A stretch of DNA of 15,187 nucleotides, from assembly GCA_937896495.1 (NCBI GenBank), contig CALBNQ010000212.1, forward strand, positions 1 through 15,187, read 5' to 3'. Position numbers and translations under genes: made by a program. Source of the DNA: an uncultured archaeon. GTDB lineage: Archaea > Thermoproteota > Nitrososphaeria > Nitrososphaerales > Nitrosopumilaceae. Below the pieces are notes generated by a model. The model worked only from the letters and a program-made list of their open reading frames with translations. It ran no database searches and was not told the DNA's origin. Of this stretch, positions 4,445 through 9,707 are shown in pieces (position 1 is the stretch's first letter; each line of letters opens with the position of its first letter).

Positions 4445-4606
4445 ATGTCAGTAGAAATTGCATGTGGAAAATGTGGTGAAAAGATCAAAGACATGAAGAT
4501 GTTAAAATCTCTAAAAGATGTAATGAAACATACTGATGGAAAATGTCCATCATGTGGACAAAAACTTTCAACAGCAGAATTTTCCCTTGATGTTCAAGAA
4601 AAATAG
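4445..4606 (+). CDS. Small zinc-ribbon protein, 53 residues, unknown function
   Basis: A short ORF with ATG at 4445 and TAG at 4604-4606. It has two cysteine pairs, Cys7/Cys10 (CGKC) and Cys34/Cys37 (CPSC), separated by a Lys/Met-rich helical stretch, which is the layout of a treble-clef or ribbon zinc site. It begins MSVEIACGKCG. A possible TATA element (TCTTAATTAT, 4414-4423) lies 22-31 bp before the ATG, and T-runs follow the stop, so it looks like a single-gene unit. It sits between the thiolase/DUF35 pair and the NrdD-like regulator, all on one strand. I do not recognise a named family. Paired Cys, codon use like the neighbours, and independent signals support it as a real gene. Confidence 0.68.
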   Translation: MSVEIACGKCGEKIKDMKMLKSLKDVMKHTDGKCPSCGQKLSTAEFSLDVQEK

Positions 4607-4631
4607 TACAACAAACGATCGTATTTAGATC

Positions 4632-4646
4632 TTTTTTATTTTTTTT
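4632..4646 (+). terminator. T-rich terminator after the small zinc-ribbon gene
   Basis: Two T-runs (six and nine T, separated by one A) begin about 25 nt after the TAG at 4606. Archaeal RNA polymerase stops at such tracts without needing a hairpin. The same stretch could also act as a weak TATA-like element for the gene at 4689. Confidence 0.4.
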
Positions 4647-4663
4647 CTAGGCACAAATGTTAT

Positions 4664-4692
4664 TAGGTGTACCTAGTCATGATATTTCATGA
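4664..4692. promoter_or_regulatory. Repeats at the start of the NrdD-like regulator gene (possible self-control site)
   Basis: An inverted repeat TAGGT-GT-ACCTA (4664-4675) is followed by two copies of the palindrome TCATGA (4677-4682 and 4687-4692), 10 bp apart, about one helical turn. The second overlaps the ATG at 4689. Upstream, AACGATC (4614-4620) recurs at 6906-6912 before the reductase gene. The pattern could be an autoregulatory site, but the elements are short and AT-rich DNA gives many such matches. Confidence 0.25.
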
Positions 4693-6833
4693 CAATGAAT
4701 GAAGAAGAATTAGAAATGAATATGGATGATGATTTTGATGACGATGATGATTTAGAAAACGATTCAGATAACAGAGGTGGAATAATGCAATCTACATCAA
4801 AACGTGTCAGAATGATTTTCTCTGTAATGGCAAGTCCAAACAGAATTGACATCCTTAGAATTCTAAATTCAAAAGGACCATTAACTTATTCAGAATTAAA
4901 GTCACTTGCAGGATTCAAATCTAAAAAGGAAAGTGGCAAATTTGCATATCATTTAAGAAAATTACTTCGACAATCACTTGTTGCTCTAAACAAAGCTGAA
5001 AGACGTTACACCATTACAAATCTTGGAAAATTAGTTCTAAGTTTGGCAAGACAAATTGAAGAACGTTCAATCATTGAAAGTGGAAAAATGTATGTTAGAA
5101 CATCAAAAGATTCCATTGAAGAATTCAATTCCCATAAAATCATTCAATCTCTAGTTCGTGAAGGTAGCCTTCCATTAGAGTTAGCACAAAAAATTACTGA
5201 AGAAGTTGAAAATAGAATTTACAAATATCAAATAACTTACCTTACAGGCTCACTTATTCGAGAAATGGTAAATTCTGTACTATTGGAGCACGGTCATGAG
5301 GAATATAGGAACAAATTGGCACGTGTAGGCATGCCTGTTTTTGATGTTAAGGAAATGACTTCTAATCTTGATCATGTAAATAATGGTGCTGAAGGACTTT
5401 TGTTTAATGCAGGACAACGTGTCTTTGCAGAACAACTTTTGACAAATGTCTTACCAAAAGATGTAGCTGATTCTCACATCTCTGGAGATTTACACATTAC
5501 AAATCCTGGAGTTTGGTCTATGATTCCTGATACAATATTTGTTAATGTTAAAGAATTAATTGAAGATGGTATTGATCTTGGTGGAAAATATCTTGATGTA
5601 TCAAGAATTTCTGCATCAAAACAACTCAGTGACATTACAAGTTCACTATCCATTATGATTTCCCTTCTTTCAAAAGAAGCTTCACAAGAAATTGTACTTG
5701 ATGGATTGGTTGGATTATTTACAAAACATTCAAAGTCATTACCAGAACTTGAAGAAAAATTAACTAGTGCATTTGCAACAACATCTACAACTTCTGAATA
5801 CAATAACTCAAACACTATTGTTTCAATTAGATTACAACTTGGATCTGATACAAAAATAATAAACACGATAATTAATGCATACAAAAATTACACAAAGATC
5901 ACACCAACTCCAAAAATTGGTTTAATAATTGATCATAGTAAAGGAAAAATCTCAGATGTTTCAGAAATAGTTTCAGAAATAATATCTATTGGTGGAAAAG
6001 TAATGTTTGCTAAAGGACAAGTATCTAGTGCTGGAATTACCAATACAACTGCAAAGACTAGCGGACCTCTTTCAATAATATTGCAATCTGTTTCAATTAA
6101 TCTTCCAAGATTGGCATTTGAATCAAATAAAGATGAAACTTACTTTAGAGCAAGATTGGCACTATTGATGAAACCTGCTTTGTCATCTATGGCATTAAGA
6201 AAGAAAGACATTTCAGATCTTACAAGACGTGGACTTAATCCAATTCTTGCAAAAAACACTCAATATATGCAAAAGAGTTCAGTAACCCTTGTTGTAAATT
6301 TGGTGGGACTAAAAGAGGCAGTCTTTAACATATTGGGATTAAAGGATAACAAAGATGGTAGGGCAATACTTCACAAAGTAATAGAGACTGCAGTTGATGT
6401 TGGAGCCAAAAAAGGTAAGGAATTAGGTGACTCTGTGGCTATTTGCATGACTGAGACTGAAGGTTCTACTCGTTTTGTGACTTTAGATGGCGAAAAATAT
6501 GGTAAAAATTCTACACTCAATTCAATGGATGGTGATTCTTATTCTGATGGAATTATCATTAATGCCTCTGATGTATCTGACTATACCAACAAAAGTGAAC
6601 CTATCTCTCAGTGCAACAAATTTTCAAAATTACTCAACGGTGGATTATTTGTTACATTGAATATTGATAATGATGCAAAAATTGCAGACATCAAAAAATC
6701 CATCGAACAAACATCATTGCTTACACCAACTTTCAAACCTGTCAAGACAGTTGCAATTTGTGGTGAATGTGGATTTAAGGATGAACCATTTGAAGACAAA
6801 TGTCCAAAATGTAAATCTCCTTACATAGTCTGA
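4689..6833 (+). CDS. Winged-helix/ATP-cone/inactive NrdD-like fusion, probable nucleotide-sensing transcription regulator
   Basis: A 714-residue fusion. An acidic Asp-rich tail (about 5-28) precedes an ArsR-like winged helix (about 36-125, MASPNRIDILRILNSKGP). Then comes an ATP-cone (about 134-225, YVRTSKDSIEEFNSHK), the nucleotide-sensing domain of NrdR and of ribonucleotide reductases. The rest resembles anaerobic reductase NrdD: SHISGDLHITNP (262-273), SINLPRLAFE (469-478), VGLKEA (539-544), TEGSTRF (590-596), and a terminal zinc site (Cys691, 694, 705, 708). The enzyme's essentials are missing: the protein ends six residues after the zinc site, before the glycyl-radical RxxGY motif, and the only other cysteines are 586 and 642, so the mid-barrel thiyl Cys is absent. 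No frame downstream encodes the missing end. I infer a dead reductase recast as a DNA-binding regulator, probably of the class II reductase gene that follows. An ATG at 4695 is an alternative start. Confidence 0.8.
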   Translation: MTMNEEELEMNMDDDFDDDDDLENDSDNRGGIMQSTSKRVRMIFSVMASPNRIDILRILNSKGPLTYSELKSLAGFKSKKESGKFAYHLRKLLRQSLVALNKAERRYTITNLGKLVLSLARQIEERSIIESGKMYVRTSKDSIEEFNSHKIIQSLVREGSLPLELAQKITEEVENRIYKYQITYLTGSLIREMVNSVLLEHGHEEYRNKLARVGMPVFDVKEMTSNLDHVNNGAEGLLFNAGQRVFAEQLLTNVLPKDVADSHISGDLHITNPGVWSMIPDTIFVNVKELIEDGIDLGGKYLDVSRISASKQLSDITSSLSIMISLLSKEASQEIVLDGLVGLFTKHSKSLPELEEKLTSAFATTSTTSEYNNSNTIVSIRLQLGSDTKIINTIINAYKNYTKITPTPKIGLIIDHSKGKISDVSEIVSEIISIGGKVMFAKGQVSSAGITNTTAKTSGPLSIILQSVSINLPRLAFESNKDETYFRARLALLMKPALSSMALRKKDISDLTRRGLNPILAKNTQYMQKSSVTLVVNLVGLKEAVFNILGLKDNKDGRAILHKVIETAVDVGAKKGKELGDSVAICMTETEGSTRFVTLDGEKYGKNSTLNSMDGDSYSDGIIINASDVSDYTNKSEPISQCNKFSKLLNGGLFVTLNIDNDAKIADIKKSIEQTSLLTPTFKPVKTVAICGECGFKDEPFEDKCPKCKSPYIV

Positions 6834-6857: not shown

Positions 6858-6914
6858 CGATCATTTCTCAAATCTTTTTACTTACTTTCGGTTTGCGATC
6901 ATCGTAACGATCAT
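6858..6914. promoter_or_regulatory. CGATCAT repeat cluster upstream of the ribonucleotide reductase gene
   Basis: CGATCAT occurs at 6858-6864, 6896-6902 and 6908-6914. The last two belong to an 8-bp direct repeat CGATCATC separated by GTAA (period 12). A fourth, imperfect copy (TGATCAT) is at 7030-7036. These lie in the gap between the NrdD-like regulator and the reductase, so they are candidate binding sites for that regulator. The repeats are seen; the role is inferred. Confidence 0.45.
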
Positions 6915-6918
6915 CTTT

Positions 6919-6948
6919 GTGTTACTACAGTATCTATCCATGTAACAC
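6919..6948. promoter_or_regulatory. Inverted repeat in the reductase upstream region
   Basis: GTGTTAC (6919-6925) and GTAACAC (6942-6948) form a perfect 7-bp inverted repeat with a 16-bp spacer, starting 5 bp after the CGATCAT cluster. The half-sites are about 2.2 helical turns apart, which suits a dimer on one face of DNA. It does not match the bacterial NrdR box. It could also form an RNA hairpin. Confidence 0.4.
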
Positions 6949-7015
6949 CAATATGAAACTCATAGTAGCGGTGTCAATATTTTTGAATCAAATTTTGAAA
7001 AAAAATTGGATAACG

Positions 7016-7022
7016 ATTTATA
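7016..7022 (+). promoter_or_regulatory. TATA-like element of the ribonucleotide reductase gene
   Basis: ATTTATA would place the transcript start near 7045, downstream of the ATG at 7029. If it is the true promoter, translation must begin at the in-frame TTG at 7059. A weaker alternative, CAATATTTTT near 6975-6984, would fit the ATG instead. Confidence 0.4.
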
Positions 7023-7028
7023 CTCTCT

Positions 7029-9707
7029 ATGATCATTACTTGTTCTAGGGTTATTATTTTGGACAATTCACAAATAGAAAACACAATCGTTGATATTCGT
7101 AAGCGCAATGGCGTAGTTACTACATTCAATAAAGATAAAATTTCAAATGCCATTTACAAGGCATTGGCTGCCACCTCCAAAGCCGACCGTGGACTAGCCG
7201 ATCAATTAACATCAAATGTTATTGATAAATTAGTAGAGCAAGGATTTACAAGTTCTAGAACTCCTACAGTTGAAGACATTCAAGATATTGTAGAGTCAAC
7301 TTTGATTGATAGTGGGAATAGTGATATTGCAAAATCATACATCGTTTACAGACACGAGAGAAGGAAATTACGAGATGAGAAGATGAATGTCTTGAATCTC
7401 AAAGTACTTGATCCAGTTTCCAAAAAGTTTGACTTGAATTGTTTACGTGTAATAGCATCACGTTATTTGTTTAGAAATAGCAAAAATGAGATAATTGAAT
7501 CTCCAACTCAAATGTTTGAAAGAGTAGCAATTCTTGTAGGAATTGGTGATATTCTATATGATTCACAAATATTTGACAAATCCGGTAATTCTACTCAGAA
7601 TGTAGATGATGCTACATCTTATCTTGAAAAATTGGATGCATTTGACTATAAATTCAAGGTAGGAGACTATTTCTTCAATAAATGGCACTTTAGATCTTTA
7701 ATCAACCACTATGTGACTTTAGCAAATAAAGGCCAGATGAAATTAGGATTCAAAGATGTTTTGACATTATTGGCTGCAAAAAAATTAGATCAATATGCCG
7801 ATAAGATAACTGAATACTTTGATCTGATGGTAGCTCAGGACTTTTTACCAAATTCACCAACTATGATGAATTCTGGTGGACGATTAGGACAACTTTCTGC
7901 ATGCTTTGTTCTTGGAATGGATGATGGCATGGAACAAATCATGAAAACATCTTCTGATGCTGCATTAATCTTCAAGTCCGGCGGTGGTGTTGGAATTAAT
8001 TATTCAAATCTTCGTGAAGAAGGTGATATTGTTGCATCAACTTCTGGTGTTGCATCAGGTCCAGTATCTTTTATGAATATTATAAACACAGTAACTGAAG
8101 TTGTCAAACAAGGAGGAAAAAGACGTGGTGCAAACATGGGAATTATGGAAGCATGGCATCCTGACATTGAAAAATTCATTACAAACAAAACAGAACCTGG
8201 TGTCCTGGAAAATTTCAACATAAGTGTTGGAATTTGGGAAGACTTTTGGCATTCTCTTGTAAATACTGATGGTAACTATGTTTTACGTAGTCCACGTGAT
8301 AAAAAACCAGTTAAAGAAATTAATTCACATCAACTAATTGATTTGATTGCATTATCTGCATGGAAGAGTGCAGAACCTGGTTTGATCTTTTTTGATCAAA
8401 TTAACAAATACAATGTCTTTGCAAAAGCTAGACAAACACCACTAAAGGCAACAAATCCATGTGGTGAACAAAGTCTATATCCAAATGAATCATGTAATTT
8501 AGGTTCTATAAATTTGGCAAATCTTGTAAAGAGACAAGCTGACGGAACTTTTGAATTTGATTGGCAAAGATATGAGGAGACAATCAGAAAGACAACAAGA
8601 TTTTTGGATAATATTATTGATGTAAATAATTATCCAATTCCTGAAATCACTCTAGCCTCAAAAGAATCTAGAAGAATTGGATTAGGTGTAATGGGTGTAG
8701 CTGATTTGTTATACAAATTGCGAATTCCATACAATTCTAAAGAAGGATTTGAATTCCAATCAAAACTATCTGAAGCACTAACGTACTATTCCATGGAAGA
8801 AAGTGTAGCTATTGCTAGCTCTCGTGGCGATTTCCCATTATGTTCAAAAACTGAATACCCTGAAGGTAAAATTCCAGTAGCAGGATACTATGAGAAACCT
8901 AAAGACTCTCATTCTTATGAATGGGATGCTCTAATTGCAAAAATCCAAAAACATGGAATTAGACATGTTTTGACTACTACTGTAGCCCCAACTGGTACAA
9001 TTGCTATGATTGCAGATTGTTCAAATGGAATGGAACCGGCATTTGCTCTTGTATTTGAAAAGAGAGTTACTGTTGGAAGATTCTTTTACACAAACAAAAT
9101 TGTTGAAGAAGCACTCAAAGAACATGGTCTATACAGTGATGAACTTCTTGCAAAAATTGCAGATAACTATGGCTCTTTGAAAGGATTAGAAGAAATTCCA
9201 CAATGGATGCAAGATGTGTTTGTTACTGCAATGGATATTCATTGGTCTGATCATCTAATGGCTCAAAGTGTTTGGCAACAATGGATTGGAAATGCAATTT
9301 CAAAAACAATCAACATGCCAAATGATGTTACAGTAGAAGATGTAAAATCTGCATATCTATTGGCTCATGAGTTAGGTTTGAAAGGTATGACTGTTTATCG
9401 TGATGGTTCTAGACACCAACAGGTTCTTCACATGACAAGTGAGAATGCGCAAAAAATATTTGAAGTTGCTCCAAGTAAAAGTGTCATACAATATGTTACA
9501 GAAAATATCACAAATCCATACATAAAGTCACAAATTAATGCAGCTCTTGCACTAAAAGTCCATGATGAAGAACTCAAAATTGAAGCACCAATACAAGATG
9601 AAGTTTCTGAAGAACGTCTATGTCCAACATGTAAAAACAATCTAGTATTTGTTGAAGGATGCAGTATGTGTATTGAATGTGGATATAGTGGCTGTACTTC
9701 TGGATAA
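7029..9707 (+). CDS. nrdJ: Class II (adenosylcobalamin-dependent) ribonucleotide reductase
   Basis: Makes deoxyribonucleotides for DNA synthesis and repair using a B12-derived thiyl radical. Residue numbers are from the ATG. An ATP-cone (about 20-115, VDIRKRNG then KDKIS) gives allosteric control by ATP/dATP. The catalytic barrel has Cys292 in LSACF, the N-x-C-x-E motif at Asn477, Cys479 and Glu481, the redox partner Cys489 in ESCNLGS, and the phosphate-binding PTGTI (654-658). The C-terminus has a Cys-rich tail (Cys865, 868, 878, 881, 884, 889) like the thiol-shuttling end of NrdJ enzymes. No small-subunit gene is near, as expected for class II. At 892 residues it is a normal length. The start is uncertain: ATG at 7029 gives the longest frame, TTG at 7059 agrees better with the nearest TATA element. 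It follows the dead NrdD-like regulator gene. Confidence 0.92.
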   Translation: MIITCSRVIILDNSQIENTIVDIRKRNGVVTTFNKDKISNAIYKALAATSKADRGLADQLTSNVIDKLVEQGFTSSRTPTVEDIQDIVESTLIDSGNSDIAKSYIVYRHERRKLRDEKMNVLNLKVLDPVSKKFDLNCLRVIASRYLFRNSKNEIIESPTQMFERVAILVGIGDILYDSQIFDKSGNSTQNVDDATSYLEKLDAFDYKFKVGDYFFNKWHFRSLINHYVTLANKGQMKLGFKDVLTLLAAKKLDQYADKITEYFDLMVAQDFLPNSPTMMNSGGRLGQLSACFVLGMDDGMEQIMKTSSDAALIFKSGGGVGINYSNLREEGDIVASTSGVASGPVSFMNIINTVTEVVKQGGKRRGANMGIMEAWHPDIEKFITNKTEPGVLENFNISVGIWEDFWHSLVNTDGNYVLRSPRDKKPVKEINSHQLIDLIALSAWKSAEPGLIFFDQINKYNVFAKARQTPLKATNPCGEQSLYPNESCNLGSINLANLVKRQADGTFEFDWQRYEETIRKTTRFLDNIIDVNNYPIPEITLASKESRRIGLGVMGVADLLYKLRIPYNSKEGFEFQSKLSEALTYYSMEESVAIASSRGDFPLCSKTEYPEGKIPVAGYYEKPKDSHSYEWDALIAKIQKHGIRHVLTTTVAPTGTIAMIADCSNGMEPAFALVFEKRVTVGRFFYTNKIVEEALKEHGLYSDELLAKIADNYGSLKGLEEIPQWMQDVFVTAMDIHWSDHLMAQSVWQQWIGNAISKTINMPNDVTVEDVKSAYLLAHELGLKGMTVYRDGSRHQQVLHMTSENAQKIFEVAPSKSVIQYVTENITNPYIKSQINAALALKVHDEELKIEAPIQDEVSEERLCPTCKNNLVFVEGCSMCIECGYSGCTSG

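What the first reader, a model, noticed from the sequence alone, without database searches (positions are those of the whole stretch)
4689..6833. A dead anaerobic reductase (NrdD-like) fused to a winged helix and ATP-cone: candidate dNTP-sensing transcription regulator
Seen: winged helix (about 36-125), ATP-cone (about 134-225) and a full-length NrdD-like region with SHISGDLHITNP, SINLPRLAFE, TEGSTRF and a terminal Cys4 zinc site. Missing: the glycyl-radical RxxGY end (only six residues follow the last zinc Cys) and any mid-barrel thiyl Cys (only Cys586 and Cys642 remain). Known: ATP-cones sense ATP/dATP in NrdR and in reductases, and NrdD needs the Gly radical to work. Inferred: the allosteric body of a reductase has become the sensor of a DNA-binding protein. 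It would work like NrdR but with a different architecture, including a possible second dNTP site of NrdD type.
Basis: partly seen in the sequence, partly recalled or inferred. Interest (0 to 1): 0.87.

Follow-up and report, generated by a model that had tools for sequence, protein, structure and literature searches.

The report
Dead reductase made into gene regulator
In ammonia-oxidising archaea and their kin, an enzyme that once made DNA building blocks has lost its catalytic parts, gained a DNA-binding head, and sits next to the working enzyme's gene, where it probably acts as the nucleotide-sensing switch for that gene.

Summary
Window 4689-6833 (+) encodes 714 aa: a winged helix, an ATP-cone fold and a class III reductase (NrdD) body with a Cys4 zinc site, without glycyl-radical loop, radical Cys pair or intact HxHD motif. 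It is not one broken copy: RxxGY is missing in 34 of 34 aligned family loci and 338 of 338 database proteins, no member examined has both radical Gly and radical Cys, and selection is strongly purifying. The family is one side of a branch against 11 active NrdDs (100/99).

In the window's order a reductase gene follows directly, same strand, in 72 of 73 distinct fetched loci, though the type of reductase changes; elsewhere in the phylum only in 3 of 19, two with an active NrdD. The window genome has no NrdR match.

The spacer before nrdJ carries GATC-core boxes at roughly helical spacing; the paired box occurs once in the whole window genome, there. GATC is also enriched before the regulator gene.

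Best reading: a dead reductase converted into a transcription regulator of ribonucleotide reductase, doing NrdR's job with another architecture. DNA binding, nucleotide binding and sign of control are inferred; the proposed second, NrdD-type dNTP site is not supported.

The parts
4445..4606 (+). small conserved two-CxxC (zinc-ribbon-like) ORF, 53 aa, directly upstream; neighbour, role unknown
   Evidence: read from the sequence; a pattern of this kind lies upstream of the regulator in 72 of 75 testable named loci
4607..4688 (.). upstream region of the regulator gene with two GATC boxes (4617, 4628)
   Evidence: in 84 relatives GATC is 2.19 per 100 bp in the 130 bp before the gene, against 0.21 in other intergenic DNA
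4689..6833 (+). regulator gene: winged helix + ATP-cone + catalytically dead NrdD body + Cys4 zinc site (714 aa)
4815..5039 (+). winged helix-turn-helix (residues 43-117)
   Evidence: (HTH_20, DUF7347 above cut-off); dN/dS 0.007-0.020
5088..5354 (+). ATP-cone of NrdD type with VRTS in place of VxKR (residues 134-222)
5355..6746 (+). NrdD barrel body without catalytic residues (residues 223-686)
6033..6038 (+). Gly449-Ile450 where active NrdDs have the Cys of the SCCR/MGCR motif
6747..6830 (+). Cys4 zinc site (Cys 691, 694, 705, 708); chain ends six residues later, without the glycyl-radical loop
6858..6864 (+). box 1 CGATCAT
6896..6904 (+). box 2, palindrome CGATCATCG; the two other exact CGATNATCG of the window genome lie inside ORFs
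6908..6914 (+). box 3 CGATCAT
7017..7022 (+). TATA-like TTTATA before nrdJ; likely nrdJ start is the in-frame TTG at 7059, where relatives have ATGGATAATTCACAA
7029..9707 (+). class II (adenosylcobalamin) ribonucleotide reductase NrdJ with its own canonical ATP-cone: the presumed target gene
   Evidence: only PF02867 match in the genome

Best explanation
The protein is a transcription regulator of the adjacent ribonucleotide reductase gene, made from an archaeal class III reductase. A copy of nrdD lost its radical chemistry and gained a winged helix. The ATP-cone and reductase body remain as a sensing and oligomerising scaffold. The winged helices bind GATC-core boxes, spaced in steps of about 10 bp and so largely on one face of the DNA, between the regulator and nrdJ, and probably also before the regulator's own gene (autoregulation). 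A change in the ATP/dATP ratio is felt by the cone, changes the arrangement of the body, and changes DNA occupancy, so that reductase transcription follows the dNTP pool. Shown here: domains, predicted fold, loss of catalytic residues across the family, selection, linkage, boxes. Inferred: DNA binding, nucleotide binding, oligomer switching, sign of control. The boxes lie about 100-160 bp upstream of the nrdJ TATA-like element, so looping or activation is as possible as simple repression.
For: Dead enzyme: the Cys pair is Cys-Cys in 11 of 11 active NrdDs, and neither is Cys in 33 of 34 regulators; no Cys at either place in 338 of 338 proteins, the window's own included; both Cys are essential in T. 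maritima NrdD (passage). At the radical-Gly column 338 of 338 have no Gly; of 120 Bathyarchaeia-type proteins, nearly all of which still have residues there, 54 have Ala, 38 Ser, 20 Tyr. One side of a branch against active NrdDs (100/99). Cone of NrdD type: 43% identity to the cone of the active NrdD beside L084 (E 2e-21), no alignment to the window's own NrdJ cone (best E 0.15, elsewhere in NrdJ). Linkage: reductase directly downstream, same strand, in 73 of 73 loci L001-L073 (72 distinct, window included) and in 77 of 80 named loci. The reductase type in the slot changes while the regulator stays. NrdR over cut-off in 1 of 36 genomes; no match in the window genome. Constraint: dN/dS HTH 0.007-0.020, cone 0.024-0.087, body 0.06-0.24 over five comparisons; window against Bathyarchaeia-type: cone 52% identical, HTH 38%, body pieces 14-28%. 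Boxes: CGATNATCG exact in 53 of 89 spacers, 37 times the density of other intergenic DNA; GATC is the densest of 24 composition-matched 4-mers in both regions; GATC pairs favour steps of about 10 bp; the paired box occurs once in the whole window genome, in the spacer.
Against: No binding or expression data. Phosphate-contacting K/R of the cone are T/S. Outside the order the reductase is adjacent in only 3 of 19 loci, one of the other 16 (L078) being cut 418 bases downstream; within the order one locus (L093) has about 2 kb downstream and no reductase. The palindrome is absent before the regulator's own gene (0 of 89 exact, 0 of 89 with one mismatch). The strict paired box is in the spacer of 7 of 18 genomes. 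Off-phase GATC distances exist (13 and 28 bp upstream, 18-19 bp in the spacer). I saw no such boxes in the spacers of other families of the order that I printed. The sequences compared are related, so their counts are not independent.
Confidence: 0.7

Rival explanations
1. The protein binds DNA but the dead body senses something other than dNTPs, or nothing: the cone is a structural relic and the regulator is constitutive or controlled by partner proteins, for instance by the reductase itself.
For: K/R of the cone replaced by T/S in nearly all members and the second His of the HxHD substrate motif lost (1 of 338 and 0 of 34 keep it); effector Gln position variable.
Against: The cone is the best conserved part between the window and Bathyarchaeia-type members (52%). 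R137, R191, R207 and R212 are kept in 338 of 338 and Y206 in 337 of 338. Some active NrdDs have the same kind of cone (L084 neighbour; viral L207), so the VRTS form probably predates the loss of catalysis.
Confidence: 0.2
2. It is an inactive subunit that docks on the active reductase and tunes it allosterically; the winged helix is a protein-protein module.
For: Linked to the reductase gene; keeps the reductase fold, so co-assembly is conceivable.
Against: The reductase in the slot is exchanged among different types and, in two other families, is a class III NrdD, which one docking surface would hardly follow. The winged helix is the most constrained part in five close comparisons. Boxes at roughly helical spacing lie in the spacer.
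Confidence: 0.07
3. It is a working but unusual class III reductase that uses other residues.
For: Public records call it anaerobic ribonucleoside-triphosphate reductase. In T. maritima NrdD crystals the radical Cys was not in place although the enzyme was active (passages). Single members keep a Cys (L076) or a Gly (L078) at the catalytic columns.
Against: T. maritima keeps both the Cys pair, which is essential, and the radical Gly. Here no member examined has both, and RxxGY is kept in none. No NrdG2-model match over cut-off in the 12 order genomes searched (a weak test, since the model passes cut-off in only 2 of 14 control genomes). The score is far below the NrdD equivalog cut-off (78.7 against 326.35).
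Confidence: 0.02
4. The boxes belong to a different regulator, and the dead reductase controls other genes, such as pyrimidine synthesis (a carbamoyltransferase gene is a recurrent neighbour).
For: OTCace-type genes lie near the regulator in the five loci in which I tested the neighbour, L062, L074, L084, L085 and L090; outside the order the reductase is usually not adjacent.
Against: The boxes are concentrated on both sides of the regulator gene, and the reductase linkage in the order is near complete.
Confidence: 0.1

Closest known systems
NrdR (bacterial RNR repressor, TIGR00244)
   Same: Cone-bearing DNA-binding protein near RNR genes; NrdR also has boxes about three helical turns apart and often controls its own gene (start of abstract; passages of PMC9110341)
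   Different: NrdR is 140-220 residues with an N-terminal zinc ribbon for DNA (passage). Here a 714-residue protein has a winged helix and a whole reductase body; no TIGR00244 match in the window genome; the cone K/R motif is changed.
Class III ribonucleotide reductase NrdD (PF13597, TIGR02487; structures 1h7b, 4coi, 8p28, 9d3x)
   Same: Fold, zinc site, the conserved Asn and Arg of NLPR, and the NrdD-type cone
   Different: No RxxGY, no radical Cys pair, no second His of HxHD in the window protein; winged helix added
ArsR/MarR-type winged-helix regulators
   Different: HTH_metalloreg far below cut-off (23.3 against 55); effector domain is a reductase
ThiR and similar enzyme-derived archaeal regulators (recalled, not tested here)
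   Same: Idea: winged helix fused to a former enzyme domain that senses the product
   Different: Different enzyme, pathway and size

Membership tests
NrdR | match to TIGR00244 over cut-off | tested here: not met
   G000 has 0 matches; 1 of 36 genomes over cut-off
NrdR | N-terminal zinc-ribbon DNA-binding domain | tested here: not met
   N-terminus is a winged helix; the zinc site is C-terminal
NrdR | ATP-cone domain | tested here: met
NrdR | specific boxes in the RNR promoter region at helical spacing | tested here: inconclusive
   GATC boxes at roughly helical spacing in the spacer and upstream, but of a different sequence, and binding is untested
Active class III RNR (NrdD) | NrdD barrel fold | tested here: met
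Active class III RNR (NrdD) | glycyl-radical RxxGY loop | tested here: not met
   absent in the window; RxxGY at the loop in 0 of 34 loci and 0 of 338 proteins; a Gly at the radical column in 1 of 34 (L078) and 0 of 338
Active class III RNR (NrdD) | radical Cys of MGCR/SCCR | tested here: not met
   Gly449-Ile450 in the window; Cys at the radical column in 1 of 34 loci (L076) and 0 of 338 proteins
Active class III RNR (NrdD) | NrdG activase in the genome | tested here: inconclusive
   no TIGR02495 match over cut-off in G000 or the other 11 order genomes searched, but the model passes cut-off in only 2 of 14 controls and misses G294, which has an active NrdD; other activase models not searched
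Active class III RNR (NrdD) | TIGR02487 equivalog cut-off | tested here: not met
   78.7 against 326.35 bits
ArsR metalloregulators | HTH_metalloreg subfamily cut-off | tested here: not met
   23.3 against 55 bits
winged-helix DNA-binding proteins | winged HTH fold and profile | tested here: met
   HTH_20 32.4 against 27 bits; fold matches
winged-helix DNA-binding proteins | specific DNA binding | not testable with these tools
   needs a binding assay

The most novel reading that the evidence does not exclude
Thermoproteota without NrdR control ribonucleotide reductase with a regulator made out of a reductase. One class III enzyme, duplicated and killed early, became a switch that can govern whichever reductase, class II or III, now occupies the neighbouring slot. 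It reads ATP/dATP through an NrdD-type cone and transmits the state through the dead barrel to an array of helically spaced GATC boxes.
Probability: 0.55. Interest if true: 0.92.

Novelty: new variant of a known kind. Interest (0 to 1): 0.85.

Why it matters
How archaea that lack NrdR match dNTP supply to demand is open as far as I could find; a review passage only presumes that, in organisms whose RNRs lack an ATP-cone, total dNTP is regulated transcriptionally (PMC4390871). This family offers a concrete candidate, usually single-copy and found in 58 of 61 relatives across the order, in the ammonia-oxidising archaea, which are among the most abundant microbes in the sea (recalled). In 7 of 18 typed loci of divergent order members Pfam finds no ATP-cone in the linked reductase, so the dead protein may be the main dNTP sensor there. 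It is also a clear case of a whole radical enzyme turned into a likely transcription factor, with eroded intermediates still visible (glycyl loop present but Gly replaced), and it exposes a recurrent public annotation as 'anaerobic ribonucleoside-triphosphate reductase'.

Tried and rejected
Truncated or decaying NrdD: rejected, because the loss is family-wide and the gene is under purifying selection. Second dNTP site of NrdD type: looked for, not supported. NrdR elsewhere in the genome: no match. Regulator in viruses: one viral-contig scan gave one relative, an active NrdD with the same cone type, not the regulator. Operator in other families of the order: nothing recognisable by eye in the spacers printed (L055, L068); not tested statistically. 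The palindrome genome-wide is not more frequent than its reversed control (114 against 129 forward sites in 17 genomes), so most other sites are probably chance. In the 12 genomes whose sites were all listed, the spacer holds an exact site in 8 (G021, G035, G073, G105, G162, G180, G207, G219) and not in G006, G030, G174 or G213; for the other 5 of 17 the list was cut. One search gave 187 of 250 phylum genomes with some match, but this includes short matches to the N-terminal part alone, so it is not used as a family count. One search was superseded: one active row had been overwritten by a fragment. Papers: ten searches listed no paper on such a fusion, judged by titles and abstract starts; passages of six papers were looked at, none read whole. 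The library holds open-licence PubMed Central only.

Rows dropped before counts: one search used 34 of the 92 distinct regulators fetched by then and 11 of 13 active NrdD loci (L105 and L106, oversized or split frames, left out). One search kept 89 of 138 spacers after dereplication; eight of these ran the full 330 bases and may include coding sequence. One search used 84 of 89 upstream regions. L029 and L073 are the same gene. RNRs of L066 and L069 are cut by contig ends and were not typed. The 338 proteins are those listed (best 120 of each of three searches, overlaps removed), the window's own included; some are the same genes as fetched loci.

Full report
What is there. Window 4689-6833 (+) is one open frame of 714 aa. 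Profiles place a winged helix at 43-117, an ATP-cone at 134-206 and NRDD at 465-710. The window lies in a 1.25 Mb archaeal assembly; the closest named relatives are Nitrosopumilus. Directly downstream, same strand, is a class II reductase with its own canonical ATP-cone (7029-9707), the only PF02867 match in the genome; the only NRDD matches in the genome are the dead protein itself.

It is dead, and family-wide. Aligned with 11 active NrdDs from the same phylum, the radical-Cys pair (T. maritima SCCR, Cys329/330; T4 MGCR) is Cys-Cys in 11 of 11 actives; of 34 regulators one (L076) has a Cys at the radical column. The second active-site Cys (T. maritima Cys125) is 11 of 11 against 0 of 34. The four zinc Cys are each kept in 32-33 of 34, and the Asn and Arg of NLPR in 34 and 31. 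In 338 database proteins, the window's own included, the pair is Gly plus a non-Cys residue in all, and the radical-Gly column holds no Gly. Among the 34 it holds a Gly once (L078, RQDGRY); L079 and L091 have a Gly-Tyr one place further on. No member has both Gly and Cys, and RxxGY at the loop is kept in none. In the 120 Bathyarchaeia-type proteins the loop is mostly still there, but the Gly is Ala (54), Ser (38), Tyr (20) or another residue; in the window's group the loop is gone. P0234 and P0251 show RxxGY-like strings near the C-terminus, not at the radical column. Of the HxHD triphosphate motif the second His is kept in 1 of 338 and 0 of 34 (11 of 11 in actives). The NrdG2 model passes cut-off in 0 of 12 order genomes and 12 of 24 others; this is a weak test, since it passes in only 2 of 14 control genomes.

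One family. On a tree of 34 regulators and 11 active NrdDs, cut to start at the cone, the regulators are one side of a branch (100/99, all 200 bootstrap trees). This fits one origin; the root was not tested. The cone is of NrdD type: 43% identical to the cone of the active NrdD lying beside the regulator in L084, and not alignable by BLAST to the window's NrdJ cone. A viral active NrdD carries a similar cone (36% over 136-272). So the VRTS form of the cone probably precedes the loss of catalysis.

Constraint. Against five relatives dN/dS is 0.007-0.020 in the helix-turn-helix, 0.024-0.087 in the cone and 0.06-0.24 in the two body parts, with dS partly near saturation. Against the Bathyarchaeia-type members the cone is 52% identical, the helix-turn-helix 38%, and body pieces 14-28%. 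DNA head and cone are what selection holds; the barrel drifts but stays.

Distribution and linkage. The gene is found in 58 of 61 relatives reaching across the order, usually once. Related proteins of 535-829 aa occur elsewhere in the phylum; names returned include Bathyarchaeia and Brockarchaeota. In loci L001-L073 a reductase follows directly on the same strand in 73 of 73 (72 distinct, window included; gap 67-525 bp by called starts). One further order locus, L093, has none in about 2 kb downstream. Of 80 named loci 77 show it; two others end 223 and 319 bases downstream and one has a broken regulator frame. The downstream enzyme is not one type: among 18 typed loci of L054-L073, 11 have PF02867 enzymes with an ATP-cone (L061 and L067 a short form), five the TSCPD-bearing type and two the Ribonuc_red_2_N class II type, these seven without a Pfam cone. 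That the TSCPD types are class II is inferred. Outside the order adjacency holds in 3 of 19 loci: twice with an active NrdD (L076, L084), once with a TSCPD-type enzyme (L079); L078 could not show it, being cut 418 bases downstream. NrdR passes cut-off in 1 of 36 genomes.

DNA elements. In 89 dereplicated spacers of close relatives CGATNATCG is exact in 53 (34 of 56 sites lie 60-69 bp after the regulator stop); density is 2.73 per kb against 0.07 in other intergenic DNA of the named loci, and 0 of 89 in the 250 bp before the regulator. In the window genome it occurs three times; the two others are inside ORFs. GATC, the core, is the densest of 24 composition-matched 4-mers in both regions: 1.40 per 100 bp in the spacer and 2.19 in the 130 bp upstream, against 0.21 elsewhere; by ratio to background it is first upstream and level with the overlapping CGAT in the spacer (about sevenfold each). 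Two or more GATC occur in 72 of 89 spacers, 70 of 84 upstream regions and 15 of 136 other intergenic segments of at least 130 bp. GATC pair distances upstream peak at 10-11, 20, 32, 39-42 and 60-62 bp, with off-phase peaks at 13 and 28; in the spacer at 18-19, 21 and 39-40. The mean phase vector is largest at a period of 10 bp (0.46 in both sets; 0.06-0.21 at 8 bp and 0.13-0.21 at 14 bp). The paired pattern CGATCAT-N10-40-CGATCAT occurs ten times in 18 genomes, seven of them in the regulator-nrdJ spacer (reversed control: one), and once in the window genome, at 6858-6902. The sequences are related, so these are descriptions, not independent tests. The boxes lie 100-160 bp upstream of the TATA-like element at 7017, which does not suit simple promoter blocking.

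How it most likely works. Inferred steps: winged helices of an oligomer hold the spaced boxes; ATP or dATP at the cone shifts the oligomer, as cones do in NrdR and in NrdD (passages of PMC9110341 and PMC11226230); occupancy sets transcription of the reductase and, through GATC boxes upstream, of the regulator itself. The main doubt is the cone: Lys7 and Arg8 of P. copri NrdD align with Thr138 and Ser139. Tyr206, Arg207, Lys209 and Arg212 near the end of the cone are almost invariant in the 338 and may serve instead; I did not show that they line the site.

Novelty. I found no description of such a fusion in the ten literature searches; public names are 'anaerobic ribonucleoside-triphosphate reductase', 'helix-turn-helix domain-containing protein', 'ArsR family transcriptional regulator' or 'hypothetical protein'. 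It is not NrdR by membership and not a working NrdD by its residues, but it plausibly does NrdR's job.

Noticed in passing
window 7029-7061: The first ATG of the nrdJ frame at 7029 is probably not the start: a TATA-like element lies at 7017-7022, and relatives have ATGGATAATTCACAA where the window has the in-frame TTG at 7059.
   Followed up: partly
window 6925-7010 and relatives: Further conserved-looking spacer elements between the boxes and TATA: an ATGAA-TTCAT inverted repeat and a TAGCGGTGTCAA-like block; possibly sites of another factor.
   Followed up: no
window 4445-4606: A 53-aa two-CxxC ORF is a conserved upstream neighbour of the regulator (72 of 75 testable named loci).
   Followed up: partly
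L062, L074, L084, L085, L090: An aspartate/ornithine carbamoyltransferase-type gene lies next to the regulator or regulator-reductase pair in all five loci in which that neighbour was tested.
   Followed up: partly
L207:2977-5460: Viral contig (IMG/VR) with an active-looking NrdD (RVTGY) bearing a similar cone, followed by a deaminase-like ORF.
   Followed up: partly
G099:C1:34320-38453 and G087:C9:66329-69229: NRDD matches split within very long open frames (1515 and 1104 aa), suggesting inteins in active archaeal NrdDs.
   Followed up: no
L125, L175, P0263: Records labelled Phycisphaerales, Proteobacteria and Eubacterium cellulosolvens carry regulator-type genes of archaeal kind; probably binning contamination or a misplaced name.
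   Followed up: no
L085, L086, L090: Shortened family members (599, 587 and 535 aa) that end before the zinc site, a further stage of erosion of the reductase body.
   Followed up: no
G021 genome: 17 CGATNATCG sites against a control of 7, more than in any other genome; a wider regulon or another factor in that species.
   Followed up: no
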